This document shows positions 20,391 through 43,813 of a stretch of 64,000 nucleotides of DNA, in pieces (the stretch's first letter is position 1; the number at the start of each line of letters is the position of its first letter). A program made the position numbers and the translations under genes. The stretch comes from Brachyspira intermedia PWS/A (GTDB lineage: Bacteria; Spirochaetota; Brachyspiria; Brachyspirales; Brachyspiraceae). The stretch is taken from contig NC_017243.1 of assembly GCF_000223215.1 (NCBI RefSeq), positions 2,480,001 through 2,544,000 on the forward strand, written 5' to 3'. The notes under the pieces are model-generated. The model saw nothing but the letters and a program-made list of their open reading frames with translations. It was not told the origin of the DNA and searched no databases.

Positions 20391-22344
20391 GCCTAAAAAC
20401 AAAGAAGAATTAAAAAAATTAACTGATGATGAAAATATAAATCTATACAATATAGATACAAGTCTTATAAAAGATATGAGTTTTTTATTTAAAGAAAGCA
20501 AAAGAAAGAATTTTGAAGGCATAGAAAATTGGAATACTTCAAATGTTCATGATATGATTGGTATGTTTAAAGATGCTCATTACTTCAATAATGATTTGAA
20601 TAATTGGGATACTTCAAACCTTAAAAAAATTTCATATATGTTTTTTAATGCATCATCTTTCAATAAATATCCTGATAAATGGAATCTTGATAATATAAAA
20701 GAAGCTTATGATGTATTTAATAATGATATTGATATAAATAAACTTCCTATTAATCTTAGAATCAATTTATATTATGAAGATTTTGATAAAATAAAAGATA
20801 TTGATATAAAAGATATATACAAAACTATCATTACTTCTAAAAACAGAAAGATTATAGCCTTTAGAACAAAGTTAGAAAAAGAACATTATGATGAACTTAA
20901 AAATCTTATAGAACATAGAGAACAAATAGAAGCTAAAAATGAAGTAAAGTTTAATAGCATAGAAGAAGTTAAGGATTATGTTAACAATAATTATGAAGAA
21001 TATTTTGATAAAAATTTAAAATTTATTAAAGATGAATATGATATTCTCACAAAAGATAAAACTAAAAAGATTGATATAAAAATAATTAAATTCATTTACG
21101 GAAATTATTTGAAAGTTAAAGACAATGTGATGAGATTAAAAATCATAGATAATATCATAGATTTAATAGATATAGAAAGTTTCAGGAATGCTGCCTATAA
21201 AATATTTGAAAATGACAGAAGTAAAATCGCTTCAAGAATAATAGTAGGCATATATGGAAAAGGAAATATTATAAAAGATTATGCTAAAAGTATTCAGGGC
21301 AAAGAATTTTATCCGCGTTCATATTATATTTATATTTTAGCTTTAAATGACGGAAAATACGCTTTAAGTTTAATAGATGAAATGGCTAGAAAATCAAAGA
21401 TTGAAAGCGTGAGAAATGCTTCTAATTCTGCACTCGATGTTATAGCCGACAGAATGAAAATAAATAGAGATGAGTTAAGCGGTTTACTAATTCCTGATTT
21501 TTCATTGGATAAAAATGGCGAGAGAATAATAAATATAGAAGAGAAAAAATACAAAATATCCGTCAATTCAAATATGTCTATTGATATATACGATATAACA
21601 GAAAAAGAAAAAATATTAAAAACTATTCCAAAAACTTTTTCATCTGAATTAAAATCAGAAATAAACTTCATGAAAAAAGAAATAAAGAATATTGTAAAAA
21701 AAGAAAGAGAAAAAATATTAATGCTTCTTATGAACGGAAGAAAATTGAGTTATGATTTTTGGAAAAAGATTTATATTGATAATTCATTTTTGAGTCAGTA
21801 TTCTATAAATTTATTTTGGAACTTATATGATGAGAATGAAAATTTTATAAATATTTTCAGATATTTAGGAGATGGAAGTTTCATTGATATAAATGATGAT
21901 TATATAACATTGAATGAAAATAATTTAATAAGTTTAACCTCAACTACTGAAATAAATAAAGATTCAATAATAAAGTGCATCAATCAATTATCTGATTATG
22001 AGATAGCACAGCCTATTAAACAGATTCAAATAATAGATGATTTAAAAGACGAGTTCAATAAATATAATAGTATAACAGTGACAGTATCAAATATAAAAAA
22101 TTTCGCTTCTCAATTTGCATTTAAAGAGATTTCTGAATATTATGAAGAAGTTAATGGTTATGAATACTTAGATAATTACAGCGGCTTATCATTATATATA
22201 GAATCTCCTTTTAATAGAAATTCAAATTACAATGATGAAATTGATATAAAAATATCTATTCAAGGCAAAAATGAGAATAATAAACATTTATTTGAAAGAT
22301 TTATGTACGGAAGCATTTTAATTTTAGAAAATTTGATTAAATAA
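20368..22344 (+). CDS. DUF285 repeat plus DUF4132 (MolR-like) protein
   Basis: 658 residues from ATG 20368. Residues about 35-125 hold two to three BspA/Mycoplasma-type DUF285 repeats (NWNTSNVHDMIGMF, NWDTSNLKKISYMF, KWNLDNIKEAYDVF). The C-terminal half matches the DUF4132 family as I know it from E. coli MolR-type proteins: DELSGLLIPDFSLDKNGER, then FRYLGDGSFIDIND, then the motif DYEIAQPIKQI. The centre is helical. An in-frame ATG at 20314 lies deeper inside dgt and is less likely. Role unknown. Overlap with dgt and AT-rich codon use suggest co-expression. No signal peptide, so cytoplasmic. Confidence 0.7.
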   Translation: MENLIIYKPKNKEELKKLTDDENINLYNIDTSLIKDMSFLFKESKRKNFEGIENWNTSNVHDMIGMFKDAHYFNNDLNNWDTSNLKKISYMFFNASSFNKYPDKWNLDNIKEAYDVFNNDIDINKLPINLRINLYYEDFDKIKDIDIKDIYKTIITSKNRKIIAFRTKLEKEHYDELKNLIEHREQIEAKNEVKFNSIEEVKDYVNNNYEEYFDKNLKFIKDEYDILTKDKTKKIDIKIIKFIYGNYLKVKDNVMRLKIIDNIIDLIDIESFRNAAYKIFENDRSKIASRIIVGIYGKGNIIKDYAKSIQGKEFYPRSYYIYILALNDGKYALSLIDEMARKSKIESVRNASNSALDVIADRMKINRDELSGLLIPDFSLDKNGERIINIEEKKYKISVNSNMSIDIYDITEKEKILKTIPKTFSSELKSEINFMKKEIKNIVKKEREKILMLLMNGRKLSYDFWKKIYIDNSFLSQYSINLFWNLYDENENFINIFRYLGDGSFIDINDDYITLNENNLISLTSTTEINKDSIIKCINQLSDYEIAQPIKQIQIIDDLKDEFNKYNSITVTVSNIKNFASQFAFKEISEYYEEVNGYEYLDNYSGLSLYIESPFNRNSNYNDEIDIKISIQGKNENNKHLFERFMYGSILILENLIK

Positions 22345-22375
22345 TTAAAAGCAATAAATTATAAAGGAGTATAAA

Positions 22376-22914
22376 ATGTCTAACGAGATACCTAAATTTA
22401 AATATGTTGATGATAATATTGTTAAAAATTTTTTGTAAAGGAAGATAATAAAGTATTATGTAAATGCTGTGAAAAGGAAACAGATTTGGTTTATTATACT
22501 ATTCCGCATTGTGAAGACAATATAAAACCGTTATGCCCTGAATGCATAGTAAATGGAAAGGCAGCTGAAAAATTTAATTGTGATTTTATTGATGAGCCTT
22601 TTGATAGTGACAATATCATAGAAAATAGAGATGAAAAAATTGAGGAACTTACAAAAAGAACACCTGAATATTCAGCTTGGCAGCAGCCGTATTATCCAAA
22701 CCATTGCGATGATTTTTGTAAATTTATTTCTTATGTTGGCTATAAAGAATTAAAAGAAAGAAATTTATTAGATAAAATAATTATATCCTCTGATAATGAT
22801 GAAGATTCTGTAAGAGAATATATTGAAGATTTAGAAATAGAAGGAAATTTCCAAGGATATTTGTTTGAATGCTTGAAATGCGGACAATTAATTTTACATA
22901 CTGACTGCGATTGA
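22376..22914 (+). pseudogene. CbrC/UPF0167 family protein, frameshifted in a T run
   Basis: GGAG precedes ATG 22376, which opens MSNEIPKFKYVDDNIVKNF and then stops. A run of six T (22429-22434) should be seven; one added T gives NFFVKEDNKVLCKCCEKETDL and joins the long downstream frame. The joined protein of about 179 residues matches UPF0167/CbrC: CxxC pairs CKCC and CPEC, GKAAEKFNCDFID, the core RTPEYSAWQQPYY, and the end YLFECLKCGQLILHTDCD. E. coli CbrC is linked to colicin E2 tolerance; the molecular role is not known. It lies 31 bases after the DUF4132 gene. It may be intact in the real genome if the T run was undercalled. Confidence 0.8.
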
Positions 22915-22927
22915 TTTGATATTTTCT

Positions 22928-23377
22928 GTATATACCTAAACAACTATATTTTATCAAAAATTATTTTCTTATTTTTATTATTAGTGGGGACTAGCCCCCC
23001 ACTTATTTTGCGACCGAAGGAAGTACTGCGACTGAAAGGAGTACCTGACGAAGTCCACTGTAAGTGTAGGTATGGTATTGCCACAGGCGAAGCCCGCCTC
23101 ACGAAGTGTGCCTACGGCAGGCGAGAAGCTATATCCTCAACAGGCTCGGATACGCTTCGCGAAGGGCTATATTTGACGAAGTCCACCTTTAGGTGTGCTT
23201 AAATTAATAATCTATCTTACATGTAAGACGATTTTAATATGATTTAGTACTAATTTTATACCTTGCACTTTCGCCGCAGGCGTACTTCGTATGGTTCTTT
23301 GACGAAGTCCGCAGAGCGTATGCGGCGGGAAAAAGTTGAATAAAAAATTGACAAAGTTAAAAATTTTCAGTATATAC
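22928..23377. mobile_element. MITE-like repeat, copy D (longest, both ends present)
   Basis: The left end GTATATACCTAAACAACTAT starts 13 bases after the cbrC stop; the right end is TTGACAAAGTTAAAAATTTT followed by CAGTATATAC. At 450 bp it is the fullest copy. The interior includes GGGGACTAGCCCCCCA, GGAAGTACTGCGACTGAAAG, the block GTAGGTATGGTATTGCCACA shared exactly with copies B and C, and a GCCGCAGGCGTACTTCG block near the R end. Short frames inside (for example 22984-23202) encode only translated repeat and are not genes. Confidence 0.8.
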
Positions 23378-23416
23378 TTAATAAATAAGCGATCCGGAGC
23401 AGATAACAGCTTTAGC

Positions 23417-23441
23417 TTGCCTCTATTGTTAGTAGAGGCAA
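23417..23441. promoter_or_regulatory. Hairpin in the region upstream of purF
   Basis: TTGCCTCT and AGAGGCAA form an 8-bp perfect stem with a 9-base loop. It is preceded by AAGCGATCCGGAGCAGATAA, which resembles the start of the structured region after glyQ (33417). It lies between repeat copy D and purF, about 100 bases before the start codon, and could be a leader structure. No purine riboswitch core is recognisable. Confidence 0.35.
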
Positions 23442-23543
23442 ACATAATAATAAAAAAATATTCAATAAATCTATTGTATAAAAATGCAATTAATTATAAT
23501 ATTGACAGGTTAAAAATAAAAATAAAGTTGGTTATAATAATAT

Positions 23544-24959
23544 ATGATGAATAATATTTATATGAATGACAAGCCTAGAGAAGAATGCGGAGTTTTTGGT
23601 ATTTATTCTAAAGAAATAAAGAAAGATATATTAAAAACTTTAAATTATGCACTTTATTCCTTACAGCATAGAGGACAGGAAAGTGCAGGTATTACAGTAT
23701 CAAATTACAAACATTTATTTACTTATAAATCTATGGGGCTTGTATCAGATTTATTTTCTAGTAATATACCTAAAGATACAGAAGGTAATATTGCTATAGG
23801 ACATGTAAGATATTCCACTACAGGTGCTAGTAAAATAGAAAATGCTCAGCCGCTTGAAAACCTTTTCAGATTGGGACAAATTGCTATAGCTCATAACGGT
23901 AACTTGACTAATGCTGAAGAATTAAGATATGAACTTGAAGAAGGAGGAGCAACATTCAATGCTACTTCTGATACAGAGGTTATTATTAAACTTATAGCTA
24001 GAAAAACTGTTAATAACTTCATAGAAGGCATTAAAGAATGTGTTAATATTATAAAAGGAGCTTTTGCTTTAGTTATAGTTGTTGATGGCAAACTTATAGG
24101 TGTAAGAGATCCTTATGGAATAAGACCATTATGTTTGGGTACAAATGCCAATGGTGATTATTTCTTAGCTTCCGAGTCCTGTGCTTTAGATGCTGTAGGC
24201 TCTAAATTCATAAGAGATATAGAAGCAGGAGAAATGGTTATAATAGATGAGGAAGGTGTTAAATCTTTCAAATACGCTAAAGACCAAGTTAAACATTATC
24301 CTTGTGCTTTTGAACATATATATTTTGCACGCCCTGAAAGTAATATAGACGGCATTAATGTTTATAATGTAAGATTCCAAACAGGCGTATTGCTTGCCAA
24401 AAAAAATACAATAGACGCAGATATAGTTATAGGTGTTCAAGACTCTGGTACAATAGCGGCATTAGGATTTGCTAAAGAAAGCGGTATTCCATATAGCATA
24501 GGTTTAGTAAAAAACAGATATATAGGAAGAACTTTCATCATGCCTGAACAATCATCAAGAGAAGAAACTGTAAAACTTAAATTTAACCCTTTAAGACATT
24601 TAATAGACGGTAAAAGAGTTATATTAATAGATGATTCATTGGTTAGAGGAACTACAAGCAGAATATTGATAGATATTGTTAGAAAAGCAGGTGCTAAAGA
24701 GGTGCATTTCAGATCAGCATCTCCTGTTATAAAAAGTCCTTGCTACTATGGAGTTGATATATCTTCCAAAAAAGAACTTATAGGAGCTAAACTCTCTGTA
24801 GAAGAGATCCGAAAGGAAATCAATGCTGATACTTTAGAATATCTCACTATAGAAGATATGCTTGAAGCTTTACAAAATCAGAATTACTGTATAGGCTGTT
24901 TTACAGGAGAATATCCTACTGAAATACCAAACAGACCTGCAGCTGAAAAGACTTGCTGA
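23544..24959 (+). CDS. purF: Amidophosphoribosyltransferase
   Basis: 471 residues. A short N-terminal propeptide (MMNNIYMNDKPREE) precedes the conserved ECGVFGIYSK; the Cys of this motif becomes the N-terminal nucleophile after processing. Glutaminase motifs are LQHRGQESAGI, GHVRYSTTG and AHNGNL. The PRPP loop is VILIDDSLVRGTTS. Late Cys residues (CYYGVD, NQNYCIGCFTGEYP) resemble the Fe-S ligand pattern of the Bacillus-type enzyme. It makes phosphoribosylamine, the first step of purine synthesis. ATGs at 23544, 23547 and 23562 are all possible; no strong ribosome-binding site decides. purC and purE follow nearby on the other strand. Confidence 0.96.
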   Translation: MMNNIYMNDKPREECGVFGIYSKEIKKDILKTLNYALYSLQHRGQESAGITVSNYKHLFTYKSMGLVSDLFSSNIPKDTEGNIAIGHVRYSTTGASKIENAQPLENLFRLGQIAIAHNGNLTNAEELRYELEEGGATFNATSDTEVIIKLIARKTVNNFIEGIKECVNIIKGAFALVIVVDGKLIGVRDPYGIRPLCLGTNANGDYFLASESCALDAVGSKFIRDIEAGEMVIIDEEGVKSFKYAKDQVKHYPCAFEHIYFARPESNIDGINVYNVRFQTGVLLAKKNTIDADIVIGVQDSGTIAALGFAKESGIPYSIGLVKNRYIGRTFIMPEQSSREETVKLKFNPLRHLIDGKRVILIDDSLVRGTTSRILIDIVRKAGAKEVHFRSASPVIKSPCYYGVDISSKKELIGAKLSVEEIRKEINADTLEYLTIEDMLEALQNQNYCIGCFTGEYPTEIPNRPAAEKTC

Positions 24960-25055
24960 CATAATAAAAATATTTATGTACTAATTGACTTTTTTATCAA
25001 TAAATTTATCATATAATTATGAAAACATATAATAAAGTTGAGGTTAGAAATTATT

Positions 25056-25547
25056 ATGAAAGAAGTTTCTTATAAAATTTGTATGAATGAAGAAGAGTTA
25101 GTAAATGCTCTTATGTCAGATGATGATGTTATTTACATAGAGCATAAACTTGGTAATAAAGTTTCTAACATAAAAAATACAGGTAAAATTGCTTGGGGCG
25201 TTCTTATAGGAGGAGTATTAGTTGCTGCTACTGCTATAGTATCATCAAAAAAATTCGGAAAAGATAAGGCATTAATAGCTTCTTCAATAGCAACAGTTCC
25301 ATCTGCAGGTATAGCTATTATATATATAGGACTTCCATCTACTATATCATTAATACAAATAATTATTCAGGCATATAAAAAAAATGATGGTATTAATGGT
25401 GCTAAGGATATAGTATTTAAATTAAGAAATAACTATTATATAGCTGAAAAAGACAGAGAAAAACTTACACTTAAAAAAACTGCTGATGAAAAAGTTAAAG
25501 AAGTAAAAATAACAGAAATAAAAGAAGCAGAAAAAAAAGAAAATTAA
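25056..25547 (+). CDS. Small membrane protein of unknown function
   Basis: 163 residues from ATG 25056, chosen because GAGG at 25040-25043 precedes it; a TTG 18 bases earlier is in frame but lacks a site. There are two hydrophobic segments: TGKIAWGVLIGGVLVAATAI and, after a short charged hinge, an Ala/Ser/Ile-rich stretch to IYIGLPSTISLIQIIIQAY. The C-terminal quarter is Lys/Glu-rich (coiled-coil-like). No family is recognised. A strong terminator follows immediately. Confidence 0.6.
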   Translation: MKEVSYKICMNEEELVNALMSDDDVIYIEHKLGNKVSNIKNTGKIAWGVLIGGVLVAATAIVSSKKFGKDKALIASSIATVPSAGIAIIYIGLPSTISLIQIIIQAYKKNDGINGAKDIVFKLRNNYYIAEKDREKLTLKKTADEKVKEVKITEIKEAEKKEN

Positions 25548-25561
25548 TCAAATAATAATTA

Positions 25562-25604
25562 AAAAGACTTTGCTAGATATTAAAATCAAGCAAAGTCTTT
25601 TTTA
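25562..25604. terminator. Bidirectional terminator before purC
   Basis: AAAGACTTTGCT pairs with AGCAAAGTCTTT, flanked by A's on the left and T's on the right. It lies between the convergent membrane-protein gene and purC. Confidence 0.9.
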
Positions 25605-25621
25605 TATGTACTATAAATTAA

Positions 25622-26338
25622 TTATAGATTATTAAGTCTATTTAACACTTCTATATAAGCCTCTTCAATAGAACCTAAATCTCTTCTGAATCTGTCTTTA
25701 TCTAATTTTTTACCAGTTTCTTTATCCCAGAATCTGCAAGTATCAGGAGTAATCTCATCAGCTAAAAGTATTTCGCCTTTTGCATTTTTACCAAACTCTA
25801 CTTTGAAGTCAACTAAAGTAATTCCTATTTTATCCAAAGCATCTTTTAATAGATTATTCACTTTTGCAGTTACTTCATAAATATATTTTAATTCATCATA
25901 AGTAGCTAATTTCAAAGCAACAGCATGATGATCATTGATTAAAGGATCGCCGTATTCATCATTTTTATAACAAATTTCAAATATAGTATTAGGAGGAACT
26001 GTACCCTCTTCTATTCCAAGTCTTTTAGCCATAGAACCTGCTATTAAATTTCTAACAATCACTTCTAATGGGAAGATTTTAACTTTCTGACAAAGCTGTT
26101 CTCTTTCATTTAACTTTTCTATGAAGTGAGTTTTTACTCCGTTTTTTTCAAGCATTTTGAAGAGTAAAGTTGTTATTTCATTATTCATAACGCCTTTATC
26201 TTTTATAGAGCCTTTTTTCTCACCATTAAAAGCAGTAGCATCATCTTTATAATACACAATTATTTCATCAGGATTATCTGTAGCATAAATCTTTTTAGCT
26301 TTTCCCTCGTACATCATTTCTTTTTTTTCTTTAGACAT
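25622..26338 (-). CDS. purC: Phosphoribosylaminoimidazole-succinocarboxamide synthase
   Basis: 238 residues, standard length. It starts [14 protein letters not shown] after a short lead, followed by [25 protein letters not shown] and the C-terminal [14 protein letters not shown], all PurC signatures for ATP and CAIR binding. It joins aspartate to CAIR to make SAICAR. It lies 69 bases after purE on the same strand, so the two are probably transcribed together. Confidence 0.97.
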
Positions 26339-26407
26339 ATATTAACTCCTATTATAGTTAAACTTTTTAAATATATTCTCTATATTATATAATATTTTTT
26401 AAAATAA

Positions 26408-26896
26408 TTAAATATCAAACTCTATAGGCTTTTCATTATCAGCAATAAAATCTTCTTTCATTTTTTTTCTGTATTCTATCAATTTATTTTTAATATCATT
26501 ATATTTTAAAGCAAGCATTTCCACAGCAAGCATACCGGCATTATAAGAATTATTTATGCCAACAGTAGCAACAGTTATAGGCTTAGGCATTTGAACTATA
26601 GAAAGTAAAGCGTCCATTCCGTCAAGATTGCTTGCACTAATAGGAACACCTATTACAGGAAGTATAGTTTTTGAAGCTATTACACCCGGTAAATGTGCTG
26701 CAAGTCCTGCACCTGCTATTATCACTTCATAATTATTTTCTTCTATATTTTTAATAGTTTTTTCAAGATGTTCAGGCACTCTATGAGCTGAAAGAACAAA
26801 TGCTTTATACTCAATTCCAAATTCTTTTAAACAAGAAGCAGCACCTTTCATTTTATCAGTATCAGATCTGCTTCCAAATATTATAGCAACTTTCAT
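26408..26896 (-). CDS. purE: N5-carboxyaminoimidazole ribonucleotide mutase
   Basis: 162 residues. The class I PurE pattern is clear: IIFGSRSDTDKMKGA, the catalytic His region VLSAHRVPEHL, AGAGLAAHLPGVIA, GVPISASNLDGMDALLSIVQMP and AVEMLALKY. It converts N5-CAIR to CAIR. No purK is adjacent, so its partner must lie elsewhere. The start has a TAGGAG site (minus strand). Confidence 0.96.
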   Translation of the reverse strand: MKVAIIFGSRSDTDKMKGAASCLKEFGIEYKAFVLSAHRVPEHLEKTIKNIEENNYEVIIAGAGLAAHLPGVIASKTILPVIGVPISASNLDGMDALLSIVQMPKPITVATVGINNSYNAGMLAVEMLALKYNDIKNKLIEYRKKMKEDFIADNEKPIEFDI

Positions 26897-27031
26897 GTTT
26901 TCTCCTAATAAAAAATATATTATATATTCAATTAATTCTAATATAATAAATAAATTAATACAATAATCACATTATCTATTTTATAAAAAAAATTCCGATA
27001 TTCTAGATAAATTATAATATAGGTTTTAGTC

Positions 27032-28065
27032 ATGCTTAAAAATATATCAATAAAAAACTTTAGAGGATTTGATAAACTAGAAATAAATGATATAAAAAAA
27101 TTAATCTATTAGTTGGTCAAAATAATTGTGGAAAAACAAGCATACTTGAAGCCATAGCTATAATATCTGGCATGCCTGACTGTTCAATAGCTTATCATAT
27201 CAATGCTATAAGAAGAATAGATGAAAATTCAGAATTAAAAAATTTATTTTATAATTTTGATTATAGAAATAATGATATAGAATTTAACTATAACTTTGAT
27301 AATATAAATCATAATTTGATGATAACTCCTATATTAAAAAAAGATATTTCATTTGACAATAAAACAGATGATATAAATGAATTAGAATATAAACTTAATA
27401 TAGAATTTGAAGATAAGAAAAAAGAAGAATATAAATATATTTTTAGAAATACTAGTATTAGAAAAACAATAAGAAGAATTGGAGAAAAAGAATATCTTAA
27501 TAATATAAAAGAATTATACTTGCATAATGTAGTAGAATGCATAGATTTATTGGATTCACTTGCTAATATAGTAAAAAATAAAGATGAAGAATTATTAATA
27601 AATTTAATATCATTTTTCAACAAAAATATAAAATCTATAAAAATAATAAAAAATGATATATATTTAGATATAGAAGGTATTAATGAACTAGTATTATTAA
27701 ACCTTATGGGAGACGGATTAAAAAAATACCTTTCAATTATTATTCCTATGGTAGTAAATCAATATAATATGATATTAGTTGATGAAATAGAAAATGGTTT
27801 GCATCATAAAAGTATTAAGCATTTATTAAGAAGCATATTAAATTTAAGTAAGAATAATAGCAATATACAAATATTTTTTACAACTCATAGCTATGAGGTA
27901 TTAAAATTTTTATCAGAAATAGCAGATAAAGAATTTAATGATATGAAAGATATGATAAATATTATTAATATAGTTAATACAGAAAATAAAGGTTTTCAGT
28001 CATACAATTATGATATTGACGGAGTTAAAGAATTATTAGAAAACGATTCGGATATAAGGTATTAA
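27032..28065 (+). pseudogene. OLD-like AAA ATPase (first gene of ATPase/TOPRIM pair), frameshifted
   Basis: Translation from ATG 27032 gives MLKNISIKNFRGFDKLEIND, the typical N-terminus of OLD/RecF-like ATPases, and then stops. A run of seven A (27094-27100) should be eight; with one more, the frame continues through NLLVGQNNCGKTSILEA (Walker A) into the long frame ending at 28065. The joined protein has about 344 residues. The ABC-type signature region is NLMGDGLKKYLSIII, Walker B is ILVDEIENGLHHKS, and the switch His is in FFTTHSYEVL. The next gene, three bases on, encodes a TOPRIM protein. Known relatives pair such ATPases with a nuclease domain in phage-defence proteins (OLD, Gabija, PARIS). 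Function here is inferred. Confidence 0.8.
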
Positions 28066-28068
28066 TTT

Positions 28069-28918
28069 ATGGATAATAATAAAAAGTACATAATACTTGT
28101 TGAAGGTAAAGCTGATAAAAAATTCATAAAAGACTATATTAAATATCAATACCAAATAGATACTGATATCAATGATAATATTATTATAGAAGAAAACGGC
28201 GGAAAAAGTTTTAACAAAAACAATATAAATAATATTCAAAAATATATTGATGATGATTACGAATTAGCAGTGATATTTGATGCTGATAACAATTTTGAAG
28301 AAGCAAAAAATAATATAAAAACAAATTTAAATATAGATGATAATAATATATTTTTATTTCCAAATAATAATTCTTTAGGTACTTTAGAAGATATATTAAG
28401 TAATATTGCTGTCATAAAAGATATAATTAATTGTTTTGACAAATACACAAATTGCATAGATTCAATACCTGAAACTATAACTCCAGCTAAAAAATCAAAA
28501 ATATATGCATATTTAGAATCAATAAAATCATATGATAAAAAAACAATAACAGAAGATAAAAGAGATTATACTGAAAATTTTTAAGTTTATCAATTTTTTT
28601 ATTCAACTTTTTCCCGCAGCAAAAAGTTGCAAAAAGTGCAAGTATAAAATTAGTACTAAATAATACTAATTTTGTTTTACATATAAGATAAAACATTAAA
28701 TTTAATCTAAAGTATAGCCTTTTTGCTTCTCGCCGAAGGCGGGCTTCGCCTGTGGCAACAAAAGAAGTGGGGTGCGGGGCAAAGCCATGCAAATATTTAA
28801 AATTTAAAAAAATTATTTTTGACAAAATATATTTGTTTTGGTATATACCAATAATAATATATGGAATTTAAATGATGAATATTTAAATCCATTAAAACAG
28901 TTTTTTGACAGTATTTAA
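28069..28918 (+). pseudogene. TOPRIM (DUF3226-like) protein split by repeat copy E
   Basis: The readable part is 166 genuine residues, then YTENF encoded by the inserted element. TOPRIM features are the Glu in YIILVEGKADKKFI, the DxD motif AVIFDADNN, and the DUF3226-like FPNNNSLGTLEDIL. After the element (28567-28848), the frame NNNIWNLNDEYLNPLKQFFD followed by SI and a stop (28916-28918) supplies the missing C-terminus. The original product would have been about 190 residues. TOPRIM proteins of this type are metal-dependent nuclease-like partners of the upstream ATPase. Both members of the pair are therefore damaged in this sequence. Confidence 0.8.
28567..28848. mobile_element. MITE-like repeat, copy E, inserted in the TOPRIM gene
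   Basis: The R-type end TATACTGAAAATTTTTAAGT begins inside the TOPRIM reading frame, and the L-type end ATATTTGTTTTGGTATATAC closes the element. The interior has TTTTTCCCGC, a GTTGCAAAAAGTGCAA block, GCCGAAGGCGGGCTTCGCC and GGTGCGGGGCAAAGCC, all shared with other copies. At 282 bp it is a shorter derivative. Coding sequence on both sides makes the insertion boundaries unusually clear, but divergence at the very ends leaves the target duplication unresolved (TA or a few bases). Confidence 0.85.
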
Positions 28919-28926
28919 TAATACTT

Positions 28927-29091
28927 TTATTTTTTTATAATATGATCCATAGACTTAGTATCTTTACTTCCGCATTTAGGACATTTAGCACCAAAGCCAA
29001 ATAAATTAAGAACTGAAGGTCTTTTTTTAGAAGAAAAAAATTTTCCGCATGAATTGCATTTATACATGAAAGGCGGATTAAAAGGAAGCAT
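28927..29091 (-). CDS. 54-residue zinc-ribbon protein
   Basis: A short frame on the minus strand with an AGGAG site seven bases before its ATG at 29091. The product begins MLPFNPPFMYKCNSCGKFF and contains a second pair in GAKCPKCGSKD. The two CxxC pairs (YKCNSCG and KCPKCG), about 22 residues apart, make one zinc-binding ribbon. It ends with MDHIIKK. It is reminiscent of FmdB-type small regulatory zinc ribbons but too short to assign. It is convergent with the broken TOPRIM gene and ends nine bases from its remnant stop. Confidence 0.75.
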   Translation of the reverse strand: MLPFNPPFMYKCNSCGKFFSSKKRPSVLNLFGFGAKCPKCGSKDTKSMDHIIKK

Positions 29092-29246
29092 AATAAACTC
29101 CTAAATTAATTTTTATATAATAGTATTATAGTATATATGTATGACAGTTTTTGACATATTTTTGACATAATTAAAAAAATTGAAAATTATATGAATAAAA
29201 TTTAAATATGGATTACTTATTCAAAATAACCCATATTTAATATTAA

Positions 29247-30452
29247 TTATAATAAAGACTCTATAAATTGTCTTGCTACCCTAGGACTTCTTCCGGCACT
29301 TCTTATAGCATAACTTTCAGCCTGTTTTATAAGTTCTTCTTTATCCATTTCTATATTATTAATTTCAGCATAAGAAAGTACAATATCTATAAATAAATCT
29401 TTATCCGGTCTTTGGAATGTTATTATTATACCGAATCTGTTAGTTAAGCTCATTATCTGTTGAATAGTATCTTCTATATGAATATCATCTCCTGTTCTGT
29501 CTTGGAAATTTTCTTTTATTAAATGCCTGTAATTTGAAGTAACATAAACTACAACATTTGAAGGAAAAGAATTAACTCCGCCTTCAAGTATGGCTTTTAA
29601 ATATGAGAAAGTATCATCATTTGAAGAGAATGTTAAATCATCTATAAATATTATAAATTTAAGAGGACTAAAACTTAAATCTTCTATTATATCCGTTATA
29701 AATGATAATTGGCTTTTCTTAACCTCTATAAGTCTTAATCCATCATCTTTAAACATATTAGCTATTGCTTTTATAGTGCTGCTTTTTCCAGTACCTGCAT
29801 CCCCGTAAAGAAGTATATTATTTGCCTTTTTACCTTCAAGCAAACTTTTAGTATTGGCAATAACCTTGCTTCTCTCTCTTTCATAACCGTATAAATGTTT
29901 AATATCCTGCATATCCTGATGTTTTGCCGGTATAATATTTTTTTTATCATCTAGAGTAAACATATTATTTTCATAAAATATTCCATGCCCTTTATTAGGC
30001 ATTTCTTCTATATGTTTTTTATATAATTCATAAAAGTTTATTTCATCACAGTCCAATTTTGATATTTGATTTGAATATTCTTCTGAAAATAATGTATTAA
30101 AATCGAATGAAGATAAAAATTCAAAAAAATTTAATTCATTTTTTAATGACTCTTCTAAATTATAATCTAAATTATCTTTCTTTATATATTTGTTTATATA
30201 AATATTATCATCTTTGAATATATAAGATAATAAATAATCAGCTATATTATTATTATATTTAAAAAGTTCATATAAAAAATCTGAATAATAATCTATCAAT
30301 TTTATTTCATTGTTTTTATTGTCATCATCATAAGCTTCTAAAAATTTAATTAGCTTTTTTATCACTTTATTTTTAAGTATATCCCTAAATATCACTATAC
30401 TAGAAAACCCTATTCTCATTTTTACTATTTTATCATTCATAATATTTTCCAT
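29247..30452 (-). CDS. DUF815 family AAA ATPase
   Basis: 401 residues. The N-terminal half is helical and poorly conserved. The AAA module starts after LYGYERERSKV, with Walker A GDAGTGKSS (217-225), Walker B FIIFIDDLTF, sensor region VVYVTSNYRHL, and the family-typical arginine region SAGRSPRVARQFIESLL. This is the layout of DUF815, a cytoplasmic MoxR-like family of unknown function. The first in-frame ATG has no strong ribosome-binding site, and the fifth codon is also ATG. Monocistronic. Confidence 0.85.
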   Translation of the reverse strand: MENIMNDKIVKMRIGFSSIVIFRDILKNKVIKKLIKFLEAYDDDNKNNEIKLIDYYSDFLYELFKYNNNIADYLLSYIFKDDNIYINKYIKKDNLDYNLEESLKNELNFFEFLSSFDFNTLFSEEYSNQISKLDCDEINFYELYKKHIEEMPNKGHGIFYENNMFTLDDKKNIIPAKHQDMQDIKHLYGYERERSKVIANTKSLLEGKKANNILLYGDAGTGKSSTIKAIANMFKDDGLRLIEVKKSQLSFITDIIEDLSFSPLKFIIFIDDLTFSSNDDTFSYLKAILEGGVNSFPSNVVVYVTSNYRHLIKENFQDRTGDDIHIEDTIQQIMSLTNRFGIIITFQRPDKDLFIDIVLSYAEINNIEMDKEELIKQAESYAIRSAGRSPRVARQFIESLL

Positions 30453-30631
30453 TCCATTTTTAATTTCCGATTATTGTAAATTTATTAAAAAATATTCAAG
30501 TATTTTTATTTTATTTTTAATTTTTTAATATTAATGTAATATTTTATTCATTTATATGCTATAATTATTGCATTACAGTTTAATTGATTCCGAGAATTGT
30601 TAAAAAACTATATTATGGATATGAGGTGCAT

Positions 30632-32293
30632 ATGAAAATAAAGACAAGGTTCATTATATTTGGTATTTACACTTTTATAGTTACTCTTTTGTTAATATAT
30701 TTGCAATTTAGAATTGTAAGAAGTGTTACCGGATATAGTAAGATATATCAGCATACTATAAAGTCATCCGCTATAGCAAGACAGTACCAGCAAAATTCAG
30801 CATATTTAACTCAGTTCGTTAGAAGTTATGTGGCAACTGCTAATCAAAAATATGAACAAGCATATAATGACTGTATAGGAATATCAGGCGGAACAAAGCC
30901 TACACCATTAAATTATGACAGAGGTTTATATTGGTCTTTATATTTAGGAAGCGGAACTAAACCGTATCAAGATGGACAAACAAAATCTTATGCTGATGTG
31001 ATGAAAGAACTTAATTTCTCTCAGGATATGTTTGATTTACTTGCTTTATCAAAGAGCAGATCTGAAGAATTAGTAAAATTAGAAGTTCAGGCTATGGATA
31101 TAATAAAGTCAATACCAAGAAATGCTGATGGAACTATACCTGATGAATATAAGGGAAGACAATTAGAAGCCATAGAATTAGTTAATGGCGATGAATATGA
31201 AAGAAGAGTTTCAGAGATAATGACTCCTATAAGTCAGTTTTTCGATAAATTAGAAAGTGATAATGCTATAAAGTTAAGGGCTGCAGCTTATGAAGTAAGA
31301 AATGATACTATATTATTTTTTATAGGTCTATTATTAGTAGGTTCATCTGTTGTAGTGTTCTTGGCTTCTTTAGGAAAAACTATAGGAAAAAATTTAAGAT
31401 TATGCGTAGAATTAGCTTCTGAAATATCTAATGGTAATTTAACAGCAGAAATAGATGAAAGATTATGCAAAGGTAATGGAGAATTTGCTTCATTACTTAA
31501 AAGTTTCAGAGATATGATATCACATTTAAGAGAAATTATTTCAAGAGTATTACAAAGCTCTAAAGAAATATCTGAGGCTGCTACAGAAATAGCACAAGGA
31601 AATACTGACTTATCAACAAGAACAGAAATGCAGGCATCTCATTTGGAAGAAACTGCTTCTTCTATGGAACAAATTGCCTCTACTATAAAATCTTCTGCTG
31701 ATAATTCTGTAAGAGGAAATCAGATGATGCAGGATTCTGAAAAATCTGTTCAGGAAGCTGGAGAAATAATTGAAGCTACTACAAATAATATAGAATTGGT
31801 ATTTGAAGCAAGTAATAAAATTACAGATATTACAAAAATAATAGAAAATATTGCATTCCAAACTAATATATTAGCACTTAATGCCGCAGTAGAAGCTGCA
31901 AGAGCAGGAGAACAAGGAAAAGGTTTTGCGGTTGTTGCTTCTGAAGTTAGAAACCTAGCACAAACTAGTCAATCTTCAGTTAAAGATATTACTTCTCTTA
32001 TAGCAGATGCTAATGAGAAAATAAAAACTGCAACAGAAACAGCTAGAAAATCCAAAGAAATATTTATGGACATAGAACAAAAAATAGAAGATACTTCTAG
32101 AATCATGCAGGATATCAGTGCTATGGCAGTAGAACAGCAGGCTGGAGTTGATCAAGTTAATATAGCAGTATCTCAAATGGATCAATCTACTCAGCAAAAT
32201 GCTGCTTTAGTAGAACAGGCTACTGCTTCTTCAGAAGGATTAATGGGACAGGCTAAAGAATTAGTTGATTTAATGCATTTCTTTAAAGTTTAA
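30632..32293 (+). CDS. Methyl-accepting chemotaxis protein
   Basis: 553 residues. TM1 is at about 6-27 (FIIFGIYTFIVTLLLIYLQF), the periplasmic sensor at about 28-220, and TM2 at about 228-248 (ILFFIGLLLVGSSVVVFLAS); then come HAMP and a long coiled coil. The signalling tip contains IENIAFQTNILALNAAVEAA followed by RAGEQGKGFAVVASEVRNLA, the hairpin that contacts CheA and CheW. I chose ATG 30632 because GAGGTG (30623-30628) precedes it; the in-frame ATG 48 bases upstream has no site and adds a charged segment before TM1. The ligand is unknown. Spirochaetes carry many such receptors. Confidence 0.95.
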   Translation: MKIKTRFIIFGIYTFIVTLLLIYLQFRIVRSVTGYSKIYQHTIKSSAIARQYQQNSAYLTQFVRSYVATANQKYEQAYNDCIGISGGTKPTPLNYDRGLYWSLYLGSGTKPYQDGQTKSYADVMKELNFSQDMFDLLALSKSRSEELVKLEVQAMDIIKSIPRNADGTIPDEYKGRQLEAIELVNGDEYERRVSEIMTPISQFFDKLESDNAIKLRAAAYEVRNDTILFFIGLLLVGSSVVVFLASLGKTIGKNLRLCVELASEISNGNLTAEIDERLCKGNGEFASLLKSFRDMISHLREIISRVLQSSKEISEAATEIAQGNTDLSTRTEMQASHLEETASSMEQIASTIKSSADNSVRGNQMMQDSEKSVQEAGEIIEATTNNIELVFEASNKITDITKIIENIAFQTNILALNAAVEAARAGEQGKGFAVVASEVRNLAQTSQSSVKDITSLIADANEKIKTATETARKSKEIFMDIEQKIEDTSRIMQDISAMAVEQQAGVDQVNIAVSQMDQSTQQNAALVEQATASSEGLMGQAKELVDLMHFFKV

Positions 32294-32316
32294 TATTAAT
32301 TAAAATATTTTCATAT

Positions 32317-32356
32317 AAGACAATAATGGTAAATTGTACTGTTATTGTCTTTTTTA
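32317..32356 (+). terminator. Terminator of the chemoreceptor gene
   Basis: AAGACAATAA / TTATTGTCTT perfect 10-bp stem followed by TTTTTAT. Confidence 0.9.
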
Positions 32357-32462
32357 TATTAAAAATATAATATTTTAATATTAATTATAGCATTTTAATT
32401 AATCATATTATATAATTGATAGCGTTATTTGATTAATAAAAAAGAATGGAGATATATCAATC

Positions 32463-33335
32463 ATGACATTTACAGATTTAATTATGACTTTAAATAAATT
32501 TTGGAGCGAGAATGGATGCATAATACAGCAAGGTTATGATTTAGAGGTAGGAGCAGGAACATTCAACCCAGCAACAGCATTAAGAGCATTAGGACCAGAA
32601 CCTTTCAGTGTAGCTTATGTAGAACCATCAAGAAGACCAACTGACGGAAGATATGGAGAAAATCCTAATAGACTGCAGCATTATTATCAATACCAAGTTA
32701 TAATGAAACCATCTCCAGAAAATATTCAGGATTTATATATACAAAGTTTGGAAGCATTAGGAATAAGCTTTAAAGATCATGATATAAGATTCGTTCATGA
32801 TGACTGGGAATCCCCTACCCTTGGAGCTTGGGGACTAGGTTGGGAAGTTTGGCTTGACGGTATGGAAATAACTCAATTTACATATTTCCAAGCTGTAGGA
32901 GGAATAAATTTAAAGCCTATAACAGGTGAGATTACTTACGGACTTGAAAGAATATGTATGTATTTACAAAATATAGATAATGTTTATGATTTGGAATGGG
33001 GACATGGCATAAAATACGGAGATGTACATTTACAAGGTGAAAAAGAATTCTCTAAATATAATTTTGAAGTTGCTGATACTGATATGTATTTCAGACATTT
33101 CAAAGAATATGAAGAAGAATGCGATAGATGTTTAGCTAATGGATGCGTACTACCTGCTTATGATATGGTTATGAAAAGTTCGCATGTATTCAATATGCTT
33201 GATGCTAGAAATGCTATAAGTGTAACAGAAAGAGCCGGATATATAGCAAGAGTAAGAGAGCTAATGAAAAAAGTTTCAGCTGCTTATATAGAATCAAGAG
33301 AAAAATTAGGATATCCATTAATCAAAAATAAGTAA
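32463..33335 (+). CDS. glyQ: Glycyl-tRNA synthetase alpha subunit
   Basis: 290 residues, the normal size of GlyQ. Motifs are [60 protein letters not shown] and [10 protein letters not shown], which form the class II active site for glycine activation. In most bacteria glyS (beta subunit) follows directly; here it does not, and the next 466 bases contain only structured non-coding sequence. The beta subunit must be encoded elsewhere. GGAGAT upstream of ATG 32463. Confidence 0.96.
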
Positions 33336-33416
33336 AGTTATTTATTTAAAAATTATTATTTATTATTATAATATATTACTAAAGACTATATATTAATTGT
33401 TTTATTAAGTTTTTAA

Positions 33417-33476
33417 AGCGATAAACGAGCAGCTGATAAATTTAGTTGTCAGCTATTTGTGAGCGAGTTTATCGCT
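33417..33476. ncRNA. Structured intergenic element after glyQ
   Basis: Outer arms AGCGATAAAC (33417-33426) and GTTTATCGCT (33467-33476) pair over 10 bp without mismatch. Inside, AGCTGA and TCAGCT form a second hairpin. About 20 bases after the outer stem comes a terminator hairpin. This may be a small RNA with its own terminator or a leader-like switch. No known class is recognised. Most of the rest of the 33336-33801 gap is plain AT-rich sequence plus the encapsulin promoter. Confidence 0.35.
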
Positions 33477-33497
33477 AGCAATAATAAAAAATTTTCA

Positions 33498-33528
33498 AGC
33501 TGTCATTTATATAATGGCAGCTTTTTTT
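33498..33528 (+). terminator. Terminator in the glyQ-encapsulin gap
   Basis: AGCTGTCATT / AATGGCAGCT (one wobble) followed by seven T. Confidence 0.85.
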
Positions 33529-33719
33529 ATTTTGATTTTATACTACTTTTAAATTATAGAAGATTATCTTTTTTGTTATCATATATTTCATTAAAATACA
33601 CATTATATGTTACCGGTTTACTTATATATATAGTTTTTATTATACATATTAATATAAAATTATAACAAATAAATTATTACTTTTTAATATGAAAAATGTT
33701 ATTATTTATTATAATAATA

Positions 33720-33747
33720 TTGACATTATTTTTTTATCTTGTATAAT
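33720..33747 (+). promoter_or_regulatory. Consensus promoter of the encapsulin operon
   Basis: TTGACA (33720-33725) and TATAAT (33742-33747), both perfect, are 16 bases apart and 55 bases upstream of the first start codon. Just downstream, TAGTA and TACTA arms around ATTAA (33753-33767) form a small dyad that could be an operator; this last point is weak. Confidence 0.7.
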
Positions 33748-33801
33748 ATTATTAGTAATTAATACTATTAAGTAATTATTTTAAATAAGGAGACTAATAT
33801 T

Positions 33802-34152
33802 ATGCCTAGTTTTGCAAATCCATTTAATGCAAATGTGAACAGAAAAGTTACTAAAGAAGAATTAATACAAGCTGTAAGACTTGATATTGCCGGAGAATTG
33901 GAGGCTATATATCTGTATGATGCCCATGTTATGGCTACAGATGACCCTGTTGCAAAGGCAGTATTAGCTGACATAAGAGATGAAGAAAAAGCACATGTCG
34001 GAGAGCTTATGGCTTTACTTAGACATTTAGACCCTAAAGAAGCAGAACATTTTGAATCTGGACAATTAGAGGTTAAAGAGATGATGGAAGAGCTTGGAAT
34101 AAAAGAACCTGATCTATCTGGGCTTACAGTTGGAAGTTTGAAAAAAGACTGA
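33802..34152 (+). CDS. Encapsulated ferritin-like protein (EncFtn)
   Basis: 116 residues. The ferroxidase residues match the Rhodospirillum rubrum EncFtn numbering as I recall it: Glu32 in GELEAIYLYD, Tyr39, and Glu62 and His65 in EEKAHVGE, with Glu34 also present. EncFtn has only two helices and forms a decameric ring of dimers that oxidises Fe2+ at subunit interfaces. The C-terminus ends DLSGLTVGSLKKD, the typical cargo-loading peptide that docks inside encapsulin shells. The shell gene follows 33 bases on. Together they would store iron and limit oxidative damage. AAGGAG lies ahead of ATG 33802. Confidence 0.93.
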   Translation: MPSFANPFNANVNRKVTKEELIQAVRLDIAGELEAIYLYDAHVMATDDPVAKAVLADIRDEEKAHVGELMALLRHLDPKEAEHFESGQLEVKEMMEELGIKEPDLSGLTVGSLKKD

Positions 34153-34185
34153 TAAAGCGATAATAAAACATTAAAGGAGGAATAT

Positions 34186-34995
34186 ATGGATTATTTAGCT
34201 AGAGAAAGTTCGCCTTTTGAAGAAAGTTTTTGGCAGAATATAGATAAAGTTGTTGTTGAAACAGCAAGCAGAACACTTATAGGAAGAAGATTTTTATCTA
34301 TTTACGGACCTCTTGGTGCAGGTGCTATAAGCGTTCAATATGATAAAAGCGACAGAGAAGAAGTTTTTGAAGATGGCTTCGTAAAAACTTCAGGAAGAAA
34401 ATCTGTTGAGCTTCCTCAGATTTATCAGGATTTTACTCTATTATGGAGAGATTTAGAGAATAATATTTCTAATAAATTACCTTTAGATTTATCTATTGTA
34501 TCTCAGGCAGCTCAAACACTTGCTAACAAAGAAGATAATTTAATATTCAATGGAAATGATTTTCTTGAATTAAAAGGAATACTCAATGCTGAGGGAGTAC
34601 AAAAATTAAAAATCTCTGATTGGGGACAAGGTGAGAATCCTTATACTGATATAGTAAAAGCTATAAATATGATTAGAGAAAAAGGCATAGTAGGAAGATT
34701 TGTACTATGTTTAAGCCAATCATTATATTTTGACTTACAAAGAATACAGCAAGGTACTGGAATGACAGAAGCTCAAAGAATATCCAGTATGATTGGAAAT
34801 CTTTATAATGTACCTGTTATCAAAGGAAAGAAAGCAGCATTAATTTGTGCTGAACCTCAATATATGGATTTGGCTGTTGGAATAGATATGTCTACTGCAT
34901 ATTTAGAACAAAAAGATTTAAATCACAGCTTTAGAATAATGGAAACTATAATACCTAGAATAAAAGACTCTAATGCAATAGTTGTTTTAGAATAG
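34186..34995 (+). CDS. Family 1 encapsulin shell protein
   Basis: 269 residues, the standard size for the HK97-fold linocin M18/CFP29 family. It begins MDYLARESSPFEESFWQNID, the cargo-docking N-terminal helix region; later come ASRTLIGRRFLSIYGPLGAG, SRKS-type strand residues, the segment LYNVPVIKGKKAALI, and the C-terminal IVVLE. It would self-assemble into an icosahedral protein shell (60 subunits for this size class is usual) enclosing the EncFtn cargo encoded just upstream. Strong AAAGGAGGAA site nine bases before the ATG. Confidence 0.95.
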   Translation: MDYLARESSPFEESFWQNIDKVVVETASRTLIGRRFLSIYGPLGAGAISVQYDKSDREEVFEDGFVKTSGRKSVELPQIYQDFTLLWRDLENNISNKLPLDLSIVSQAAQTLANKEDNLIFNGNDFLELKGILNAEGVQKLKISDWGQGENPYTDIVKAINMIREKGIVGRFVLCLSQSLYFDLQRIQQGTGMTEAQRISSMIGNLYNVPVIKGKKAALICAEPQYMDLAVGIDMSTAYLEQKDLNHSFRIMETIIPRIKDSNAIVVLE

Positions 34996-35027
34996 TTTAA
35001 TTTCATAATAACTCTTTAAAAATTATA

Positions 35028-35063
35028 AGCCTGCAGGTTATATAAAATCTGCAGGTTTTATTT
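35028..35063 (+). terminator. Terminator of the encapsulin operon
   Basis: CCTGCAG / CTGCAGG stem with a 12-base loop, followed by TTTTATTTTAT. Confidence 0.8.
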
Positions 35064-35174
35064 TATAATTACATATTATTGTTTTTTTATTAGTTTACTA
35101 TATAATTTCATAAATATTAAATATTATTTCAATCTAATTATAATTTTTTAATAATACCAAATTAGGAGTATTAA

Positions 35175-36326
35175 ATGTCATATCATTGCGAATGTGAACA
35201 ATGTAAAAATAAAGAATTCAATCCTGAAGATTATATTATAAAAGAAGAAGATTTTAAAGTACTCGATAAAGAACGTCCTTTGGGTATATCAGGACATTTA
35301 AGAGTAAAGGATGAAGCTATGAGTATAGCTGAATGTATAGACTCATGTATTGATGCCTTAGATGAACTTATTATAACATACAATAAATCAACAGATGATA
35401 CAGAAGAAATATTAAAAGACTATGAAAAAAAATATCCTGATAAAATAAGACTTTATTATTATGCTCCTAATATAATAGGATATAATGAAAATGAATATAA
35501 AACAAAATATTCAGAAATTCATTATTTTTATCATTATAGCAATTTTGGTTATTTAAAAATAAAATATCGATATTATATAAAGATAGATGCAGACCAAATT
35601 TATTTTACAGAAAAATTATTAGATATACGAGAAGCTTTATTATCAGATATAAACGCTTCAGAAACCATCAATAAATTATTAACGATAGATAAAATTTCTT
35701 GGTATATACCTATTAAAAAACTAAGAAATAATTTCAGAACCTATTATATAAAAAAATTATTTAACATAAAAGATAAATACTATAACTTTAATTGTCCTGA
35801 ATATTTTTTAAGTTTAAAAGATTTTATAATATATTCAAAGATGAAATATACTGATAATTTTTATTTACTAATTAGTGGATTTGAGTTAGGATTAAATAAT
35901 GATTCTCTTTGTCTAAATACATCATTTGTATATAATGGAGCCACTGGTGATCATTTTATATTTGTGCCTACTCAAAATTATACTTATTATTTAAATTCTG
36001 TTGGGTTAGAAAGTATTCATCTTCCTCATAATTGTAGTGTATTAGGATTATCTTGGGTTCATTTAGGATTGATAAAAAGATCAATAAATATAGACAGTGA
36101 AATTAAATTTATGGATATACATAAAATGAATAATGAAGATATATTAAAATATATAGAAAATAATTTGGAAAAAAAAGAATATCAAACTCTATTATCAGAT
36201 TTGACTATAAAATATTTTGATAATGATAAGCAATATCTTAATAAAGAATTTTATGATAAATATTTAAAAAAAACTCTTGAATATGTTATAAAAAATAGAG
36301 ACCAATTTATAAAAAGATTATGGTAA
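35175..36326 (+). CDS. Family 2-like glycosyltransferase
   Basis: 383 residues. A short Cys-rich start (CECEQCKNKEF) precedes a GT-A-like domain: GHLRVKDEAMSIAECIDSCI, then DELIITYNKSTDDTEEIL, and a DxD-like motif in YIKIDADQIYF. These are the pattern of nucleotide-sugar transferases acting on surface polysaccharide or glycoprotein. The Cys cluster could bind a metal. The C-terminal half is Tyr/Asn-rich and specific to this lineage. Monocistronic; its stop lies three bases from that of the convergent gene. Confidence 0.7.
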   Translation: MSYHCECEQCKNKEFNPEDYIIKEEDFKVLDKERPLGISGHLRVKDEAMSIAECIDSCIDALDELIITYNKSTDDTEEILKDYEKKYPDKIRLYYYAPNIIGYNENEYKTKYSEIHYFYHYSNFGYLKIKYRYYIKIDADQIYFTEKLLDIREALLSDINASETINKLLTIDKISWYIPIKKLRNNFRTYYIKKLFNIKDKYYNFNCPEYFLSLKDFIIYSKMKYTDNFYLLISGFELGLNNDSLCLNTSFVYNGATGDHFIFVPTQNYTYYLNSVGLESIHLPHNCSVLGLSWVHLGLIKRSINIDSEIKFMDIHKMNNEDILKYIENNLEKKEYQTLLSDLTIKYFDNDKQYLNKEFYDKYLKKTLEYVIKNRDQFIKRLW

Positions 36327-42632: not shown

Positions 42633-42785
42633 AACTTATATATTAAATTATATCATTAAATAATTAGTAGAATATGTTTTTATATATTAATGCTATATAA
42701 TTAAATAAAATTAAAACTGTCAATCAAATATTCTTCAAAAGCTATAGAATATATATAAACATTATCTGCTAGCATATTGCTATAG

Positions 42786-43626: not shown

Positions 43627-43813
43627 AATTAATTTAAGGGTATAATTTCTTTAAAATAATTTTTGAAATATTAAAAAAAAAAAATGCATAGTTCAAATGC
43701 AATATTTTCTTTTTATCGTATTATATTTTATAAACCTAATATCATTTTGAAGTATTAAAAAAATTAATACTTCAAATTTAACTTATCAAATAAAGATTTA
43801 AGGAGTAATAAAA

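What the first reader, a model, noticed from the sequence alone, without database searches (positions are those of the whole stretch)
27032..28918. Compact ATPase/TOPRIM two-gene module, both genes broken as read
An OLD/AAA_15-like ATPase gene is followed after three bases by a small TOPRIM (DUF3226-like) gene. Seen: Walker A and B and a switch His in the first, VEG and DxD motifs in the second. Known: OLD, Gabija (GajA) and PARIS (AriA/AriB) join these two activities in phage defence. Inference: this is a split, minimal relative, possibly a defence or abortive-infection pair distinct from PARIS, whose AriB is DUF4435. Loss of both genes by separate lesions would fit a costly or toxic system that decays when selection is relaxed.
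Basis: partly seen in the sequence, partly recalled or inferred. Interest (0 to 1): 0.75.

Follow-up and report, generated by a model that had tools for sequence, protein, structure and literature searches.

The report
Broken AbiL phage-defence gene pair
This is a damaged copy of AbiL, a known two-gene bacterial system in which infected cells shut down to stop phages; one of its two breaks looks like a sequencing error, and relatives show that the toxic half is lost again and again while the ATPase half can be kept on its own.

Summary
They are AbiLi and AbiLii of the known abortive-infection system AbiL: intact homologues match PADLOC AbiLi over its full length (255-313 bits) and AbiLii (56-93 bits). 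AbiLii is a DUF3226 TOPRIM protein with the metal-site residues of OLD nucleases, not a PARIS AriB.

The two breaks differ in kind. The 277-base repeat insertion in abiLii looks genuine: the element is dispersed in the genome, has TATAC-like flanks, and is absent from relatives. The A-tract break in abiLi is probably a sequencing error. Ten kilobases away the only full-length glmS is broken at two A tracts, and the paralogous abiLi is broken at the same A tract.

The "costly, decaying" idea gains support. AbiLii is broken in five of nine related Brachyspira loci. A separate clade keeps a lone AbiLi beside hisA in ten genomes, under purifying selection (dN/dS 0.06-0.15 between close relatives). 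Most copies have lost catalytic residues, and all have lost an acidic-hydrophobic-Arg C-terminal tail found in 31 of 33 paired ATPases, a candidate effector-docking site. The pair itself is a known kind.

The parts
27032..27112 (+). abiLi, N-terminal piece as read (26 aa, stop 27110-27112)
   Evidence: relatives read through the same place in one frame
27091..28065 (+). abiLi, rest of the gene (open frame, 324 aa): AAA_21/OLD-type ABC ATPase AbiLi
   Evidence: AAA_21 84.5 bits; PADLOC AbiLi PDLC02336 234 bits, profile 22-340 of 340
27094..27100 (+). A tract at which the two abiLi frames part; probable homopolymer error of the assembly
   Evidence: 454 sequencing of the matching strain
27115..27138 (+). 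Walker A GQNNCGKT
27772..27804 (+). Walker B and D-loop ILVDEIENGLH
27874..27891 (+). switch His (FFTTHS)
28039..28062 (+). C-terminal tail ENDSDIRY; acidic-hydrophobic-Arg tail shared by DUF3226-paired ATPases, absent from orphans (proposed effector-docking site, inferred)
28069..28584 (+). abiLii as read (171 aa), DUF3226 TOPRIM nuclease, truncated by the insertion
   Evidence: DUF3226 55.5 bits; PADLOC AbiLii 42.9 bits; AlphaFold model of an intact relative, fold closest to OLD C-terminal regions
28099..28116 (+). TOPRIM VEGKAD (Glu12 and Asp16)
28276..28290 (+). TOPRIM DxD (FDADN)
28375..28389 (+). GxLE motif (Glu107), proposed counterpart of OLD Glu508
28573..28849 (.). inserted dispersed repeat (about 265 bp) with one copy of a TATAC-like direct repeat; the other copy is at 28567-28572
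   Evidence: 57 matching places in the genome; copies aligned with flanks; absent from 8 relatives
28850..28918 (+). separated 3' end of abiLii (22 codons and stop: NNNIWNLNDEYLNPLKQFFDSI)

Best explanation
The locus is a chromosomal AbiL system. AbiLi, an OLD-type ABC ATPase, is the sensor and holder; AbiLii, a stand-alone TOPRIM nuclease, is the toxic effector. By analogy with PARIS, AbiLi would assemble into a ring that keeps AbiLii inactive until a phage signal releases it. AbiLii would then cut a nucleic acid (RNA/tRNA or DNA, not known which) and stop growth before the phage matures. Shown here: family membership, gene coupling, conserved metal-site residues, and an OLD-like fold of the effector. 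Inferred: sensing, ring assembly, release, target. The C-terminal [DE]-hydrophobic-Arg tail of AbiLi is proposed as the effector-docking site. In this strain the effector is truncated by a real repeat insertion, so the pair is probably inactive; the ATPase gene is probably intact in the cell and only mis-read in the deposited sequence. Effector loss is recurrent in Brachyspira, and one lineage retains the ATPase alone.
For: PADLOC AbiLi PDLC02336 is the best match at full length (234 bits for the window piece, 255 and 313 for intact relatives) and AbiLii PDLC02338 is the best match for the TOPRIM gene (43, 56, 93 bits). Literature: AbiLi/AbiLii bicistronic Abi; F. nucleatum AbiLii toxic in E. 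coli (PMC3985639); AAA antitoxin paired with TOPRIM_OLD toxin (PMC10440598). AriA hexamer sequesters AriB, a tRNase. 29 of 29 testable DUF3226 genes lie directly downstream of an AbiLi-like ATPase. Two-metal OLD residues E400/E404/D455/D457/E508/K562 (PMC6755086) line up by order and spacing with E12/D16/D71/D73/E107/K142. AbiLii model pLDDT 91; the top five PDB folds are OLD nucleases. Effector lesions in five of nine loci, three of them (G007, G009, G024) neither single-base homopolymer changes nor insertions. Window genes under past purifying selection, dN/dS about 0.15-0.17. Orphan clade: monophyletic 98/98, dN/dS 0.06-0.15 between close relatives, tail lost in 10 of 10. A-tract error: glmS, the only full-length copy, broken at two A tracts; 454 at 14x; 454 frameshifts common in low-G+C genomes.
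Against: No function was tested. The AbiLii profile match is modest and the profile short (125 positions). Fold matches of AbiLii are weak (E 0.003-0.009 for the best four, TM about 0.5). F. nucleatum AbiLi did not neutralise its AbiLii, so a plain antitoxin role for AbiLi is unproven. The deposited G006 locus has a broken AbiLi with an intact AbiLii, which argues against simple antitoxin dependence unless that A-tract break is also an error. Strain identity rests on genome size only.
Confidence: 0.85

Rival explanations
1. The A-tract break is real and both genes are decaying pseudogenes: a costly system under relaxed selection.
For: The repeat insertion is real; in G024 both genes are broken, with a stop at the catalytic Glu codon of AbiLii.
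Against: The only full-length glmS carries the same kind of A-tract break twice; the paralogous abiLi shows it at the same tract while nine orthologues are intact; the platform is 454 at 14x.
Confidence: 0.25
2. The A tract is a programmed or phase-variable slippage site that switches AbiLi on and off.
For: The tract lies at the frame junction, and both abiLi copies of this genome part there.
Against: G004, G005 and G006 have no comparable tract there yet read through; A/T runs of 7 are common in this genome (about 13 per 10 kb).
Confidence: 0.06
3. It is a PARIS (AriA/AriB) variant.
For: Same architecture of ATPase and TOPRIM as adjacent genes; AriA models hit AbiLi (86 bits).
Against: The effector matches DUF3226, not DUF4435; AbiLi is the far better model; no clear [DE]-hydrophobic-Arg tail was seen on the ATPases found beside DUF4435 genes.
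Confidence: 0.05
4. A housekeeping RecF/primase-like pair unrelated to defence.
For: Weak RecF, Rad50 and SMC similarity of the ATPase; small TOPRIM proteins appear among weak fold matches.
Against: Patchy presence, two different chromosomal sites, recurrent loss; RecF equivalog score 26 against a cut-off of 172; best folds are OLD, Gabija and retron effectors.
Confidence: 0.04

Closest known systems
AbiL (AbiLi/AbiLii), abortive infection of Lactococcus lactis (Deng 1999, cited in PMC3985639); PADLOC PDLC02336/PDLC02338
   Same: Two adjacent genes in the same order, AbiLi model over full length, AbiLii model as best match
   Different: Chromosomal in Brachyspira; effector truncated here; sequences too far for tblastn to find full-length plasmid copies
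PARIS (AriA/AriB)
   Same: ATPase and TOPRIM as separate adjacent genes; likely hold-and-release logic
   Different: AriB is DUF4435; the C-terminal tail motif was not seen on ATPases beside DUF4435 genes
Class 1/2 OLD nucleases and Gabija GajA
   Same: OLD-type ATPase and TOPRIM with matching metal-site residues; closest folds
   Different: Single polypeptide; Gabija adds a UvrD-like helicase, none here
PADLOC candidates PDC-M38A/B
   Same: Next-best models for both genes (147 bits and about 32 bits)
   Different: Lower scores than AbiL; function untested
MADS (MAD3/MAD4)
   Same: ATPase/TOPRIM components with weak similarity (40 and 27 bits)
   Different: Part of a multi-gene methylation-associated system, absent here

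Membership tests
AbiL | AbiLi-family ATPase over full length | tested here: met
   PDLC02336 profile 1-340 of 340, 255 and 313 bits in intact relatives; 22-340 in the window piece
AbiL | AbiLii-family TOPRIM gene directly downstream | tested here: met
   PDLC02338 is the best model: 42.9, 56.3 and 92.7 bits; three-base gap
AbiL | Abortive infection upon phage attack | not testable with these tools
   needs a phage assay
AbiL | AbiLii toxic when expressed alone | not testable with these tools
   shown for the F. nucleatum homologue only (PMC3985639)
PARIS | AriB effector of the DUF4435 family | tested here: not met
   Pfam gives DUF3226, no DUF4435; no DUF4435 match anywhere in the own genome
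Gabija | GajA single chain (ATPase + TOPRIM) with GajB helicase next to it | tested here: not met
   separate genes; downstream gene is a zinc-ribbon protein, then DUF815
Class 1/2 OLD | ATPase and TOPRIM in one polypeptide | tested here: not met
   stop codon and new start between them in the window and in the relatives read
OLD-type two-metal TOPRIM nuclease | Glu, Glu/Asp at +4, DxD, downstream Glu and Lys | tested here: met
   E12, D16, D71, D73, E107, K142; E12, D71, E107 invariant and K142 nearly so in 21 sequences (reference residues)
RecF housekeeping | RecF equivalog score | tested here: not met
   26 bits against a cut-off of 172

The most novel reading that the evidence does not exclude
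Brachyspira has domesticated the ATPase half of AbiL. A clade of ten genomes keeps a lone AbiLi beside hisA under purifying selection although no AbiLii is beside it, and three of these genomes (G008, G022, G025) have no detectable DUF3226 gene at all. In most copies the catalytic Glu and switch His, and in all copies the proposed effector-docking tail, are gone. The lone protein may act as a catalytically dead guard against incoming AbiLii, or may have a new cellular role.
Probability: 0.35. Interest if true: 0.65.

Novelty: new member of a known kind. Interest (0 to 1): 0.4.

Why it matters
AbiL has been known for decades, but I found no account here of how AbiLi controls AbiLii. The Brachyspira series supplies natural separations of the two parts: intact pairs, ATPase with dead effector, and a long-lived ATPase without effector that has lost its catalytic residues and C-terminal tail. 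This points to a short tail as the docking site and makes the hold-and-release model directly testable. It also warns that frameshifts at A tracts in an old low-G+C 454 genome should not be read as decay without reads.

Tried and rejected
Plasmid search with AbiLi gave only partial hits (at most 42% of the query) and none with AbiLii; phage search no match; viral contigs gave two short N-terminal matches. So no link to mobile elements was found. Rfam: nothing in 20000-36000. Defence island: only a housekeeping-like dGTPase among ten neighbours. Relics of abiLii behind orphan abiLi genes: only low-complexity and repeat matches, no relic. DUF3226 in the paper library: no paper. PARIS structure papers were not held, so the AriA-AriB interface could not be compared. 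Slippage as a programmed signal: tract not shared by the nearest intact relatives. PDB by sequence: AbiLi finds PtuA, RecF, Rad50 and OLD; AbiLii finds nothing meaningful.

Full report
WHAT IS THERE. The deposited sequence holds an ATPase gene that starts at 27032 and stops at 27110-27112, while the rest of the same protein is open at 27091-28065 in another frame; a 7-A tract (27094-27100) sits at the junction. Three bases later a TOPRIM gene starts at 28069. It runs to 28584, where it ends inside an inserted repeat; its last 22 codons and stop are at 28850-28918.

IDENTITY. Pfam gives AAA_21 (84.5 bits) and DUF3226 (55.5 bits), both above cut-off. PADLOC gives AbiLi PDLC02336 as the best model for the ATPase (234 bits) and AbiLii PDLC02338 for the TOPRIM gene (42.9 bits). 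Intact relatives match AbiLi over all 340 positions (255 and 313 bits) and AbiLii with 56 and 93 bits. AbiL is a bicistronic abortive-infection system of Lactococcus; the F. nucleatum AbiLii homologue is toxic in E. coli, although its AbiLi did not neutralise it (PMC3985639). Other AAA proteins paired with TOPRIM_OLD toxins have been studied as antitoxin-toxin pairs (PMC10440598).

EFFECTOR CHEMISTRY. In 21 DUF3226 proteins E12, D71, G104 and E107 are invariant, with K142 nearly so; D16 and D73 are kept in AbiL proper. Class 2 OLD nucleases use E400, E404, D455, D457, E508 (metal ligands or water contacts) and K562. The order and the +4 and DxD spacings agree. The correspondence is by motif order, not by superposition. 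The AlphaFold model of an intact AbiLii (G005) has pLDDT 91. Its best folds in the PDB are OLD proteins, then PARIS and GajA, with weak E-values of 0.003-0.1. A read-through chain of the G005 pair, with the intergenic stop codon read as a residue, matches GajA, OLD and retron Eco8 effectors (E about 1e-14 to 1e-12, but low TM-scores).

COUPLING. In 296 genomes of the phylum, 30 DUF3226 loci were fetched. In 29 of them an AbiLi-like ATPase lies directly upstream on the same strand; the remaining one (L167) ends at a contig edge.

THE TWO LESIONS ARE NOT ALIKE. The insertion (28573-28849) is a dispersed element: 57 matching places in the genome, copies with the same ends, and TATAC-like repeats on both sides. 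Eight relatives lack it, so it looks real. The A-tract break is doubtful. The two contigs (3,304,788 bases plus the rest of 3,308,048) fit B. intermedia PWS/A; that identity is my recollection of the genome size, not a tool result. That strain was sequenced by 454 at 14x with an estimated 1.5 errors per 10 kb (PMC3163572). In the same window glmS (16934-18755), whose only full-length copy this is, is broken at two A tracts while a relative at 97-100% identity is intact. The paralogous abiLi beside hisA parts at the same tract, while nine orthologues are intact. Where relatives have A/T runs of 7 or more, the window is shorter in 6 (G025) and 9 (G022) cases and never longer; the converse count is 2 and 1 (conditioning on the relative's length inflates the first figures). 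[quoted passage not shown] I put about 70% on error. Programmed slippage is unlikely because the nearest intact relatives lack the tract.

DECAY ACROSS THE GENUS. Two chromosomal sites hold AbiL: beside purE (G000, G004, G005, G006, G024) and beside hisA. Among nine loci with abiLii, both genes are intact in G005, G018 and G021. AbiLii is broken in G000 (insertion), G004 (frame break at an A tract), G007 (catalytic Glu codon changed to Lys, plus a nonsense codon), G009 (two-base frame break) and G024 (stop at the catalytic Glu codon). AbiLi is broken in G000, G006 and G024. The lesions in G007, G009 and G024 are not single-base homopolymer changes. Before breakage the window genes were under purifying selection (AbiLi dN/dS 0.16-0.17, AbiLii about 0.15).

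ORPHAN ATPASES. Ten genomes keep an AbiLi beside hisA with no AbiLii next to it. They form one clade (98/98) inside the paired sequences. Pairwise dN/dS among close relatives is 0.06-0.15 and reaches 0.24 for the deepest pair, so they are maintained. In the eight-genome core clade ILVDEIENGLH has become ILADDI-type, and in nine of ten orphans the switch His is gone; G014 keeps both. All ten have lost the C-terminal tail. G008, G022 and G025 have no DUF3226 match in the whole genome. A similar copy in G015 is a relic.

TAIL. 31 of 33 ATPases fetched beside a TOPRIM gene or by similarity end in [DE]-hydrophobic-Arg within six residues of the C-terminus; one exception is the frame-broken G024 copy, the other a weak match. 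None of ten orphans has it, and it was not seen in the ATPases printed beside DUF4435 genes. Relatedness inflates the count, but it spans sequences of about 25% identity. I propose it as the effector-docking site; this is inference.

MECHANISM. Most likely AbiLi senses and holds, and AbiLii cuts. In PARIS the AriA hexamer sequesters AriB, and a phage trigger releases the tRNase (PMC11455837; PMC12409363). The trigger and target of AbiL are not known from this work. In the present strain the truncated effector keeps its metal-site residues but lacks the conserved last helix, so it is probably inactive.

NOT DONE. All comparisons used pieces as read and naturally intact relatives.

Noticed in passing
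window 16934-18755: glmS (glucosamine-6-phosphate synthase), the only full-length copy in the genome, is broken into three frames at two A tracts; relatives are intact. Likely sequencing errors in an essential gene.
   Followed up: yes
L046 (G000:C2:2747144-2748091), L047, L048, L049, L017-L022: Orphan AbiLi beside hisA in ten Brachyspira genomes, under purifying selection, with degenerate Walker B and switch His in most copies and no C-terminal tail.
   Followed up: yes
G000:C2:1322900-1324507 (L006): Another ATPase + DUF3226 pair in the same genome; the DUF3226 gene is in two pieces near an A tract.
   Followed up: partly
G000:C2:517014-518754 (L004): A third, apparently intact ATPase + DUF3226 pair of a more distant type, present in several Brachyspira.
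   Followed up: partly
window 28573-28849: Dispersed element of about 265 bp with dozens of copies, inserted at TATAC-like sites; similar sequence also lies downstream of orphan abiLi in G014, G022 and G025.
   Followed up: partly
window 42774-43664: Remnant of a gene of about 433 codons in relatives, broken in several frames at about 80-85% identity: probably a true pseudogene.
   Followed up: partly
window 33802-34995: Encapsulin shell gene (Linocin_M18) directly behind an EncFtn-like cargo gene.
   Followed up: no
window 22984-23202: Small ORF over repeat sequence that also occurs near orphan abiLi in L021 and L022.
   Followed up: no
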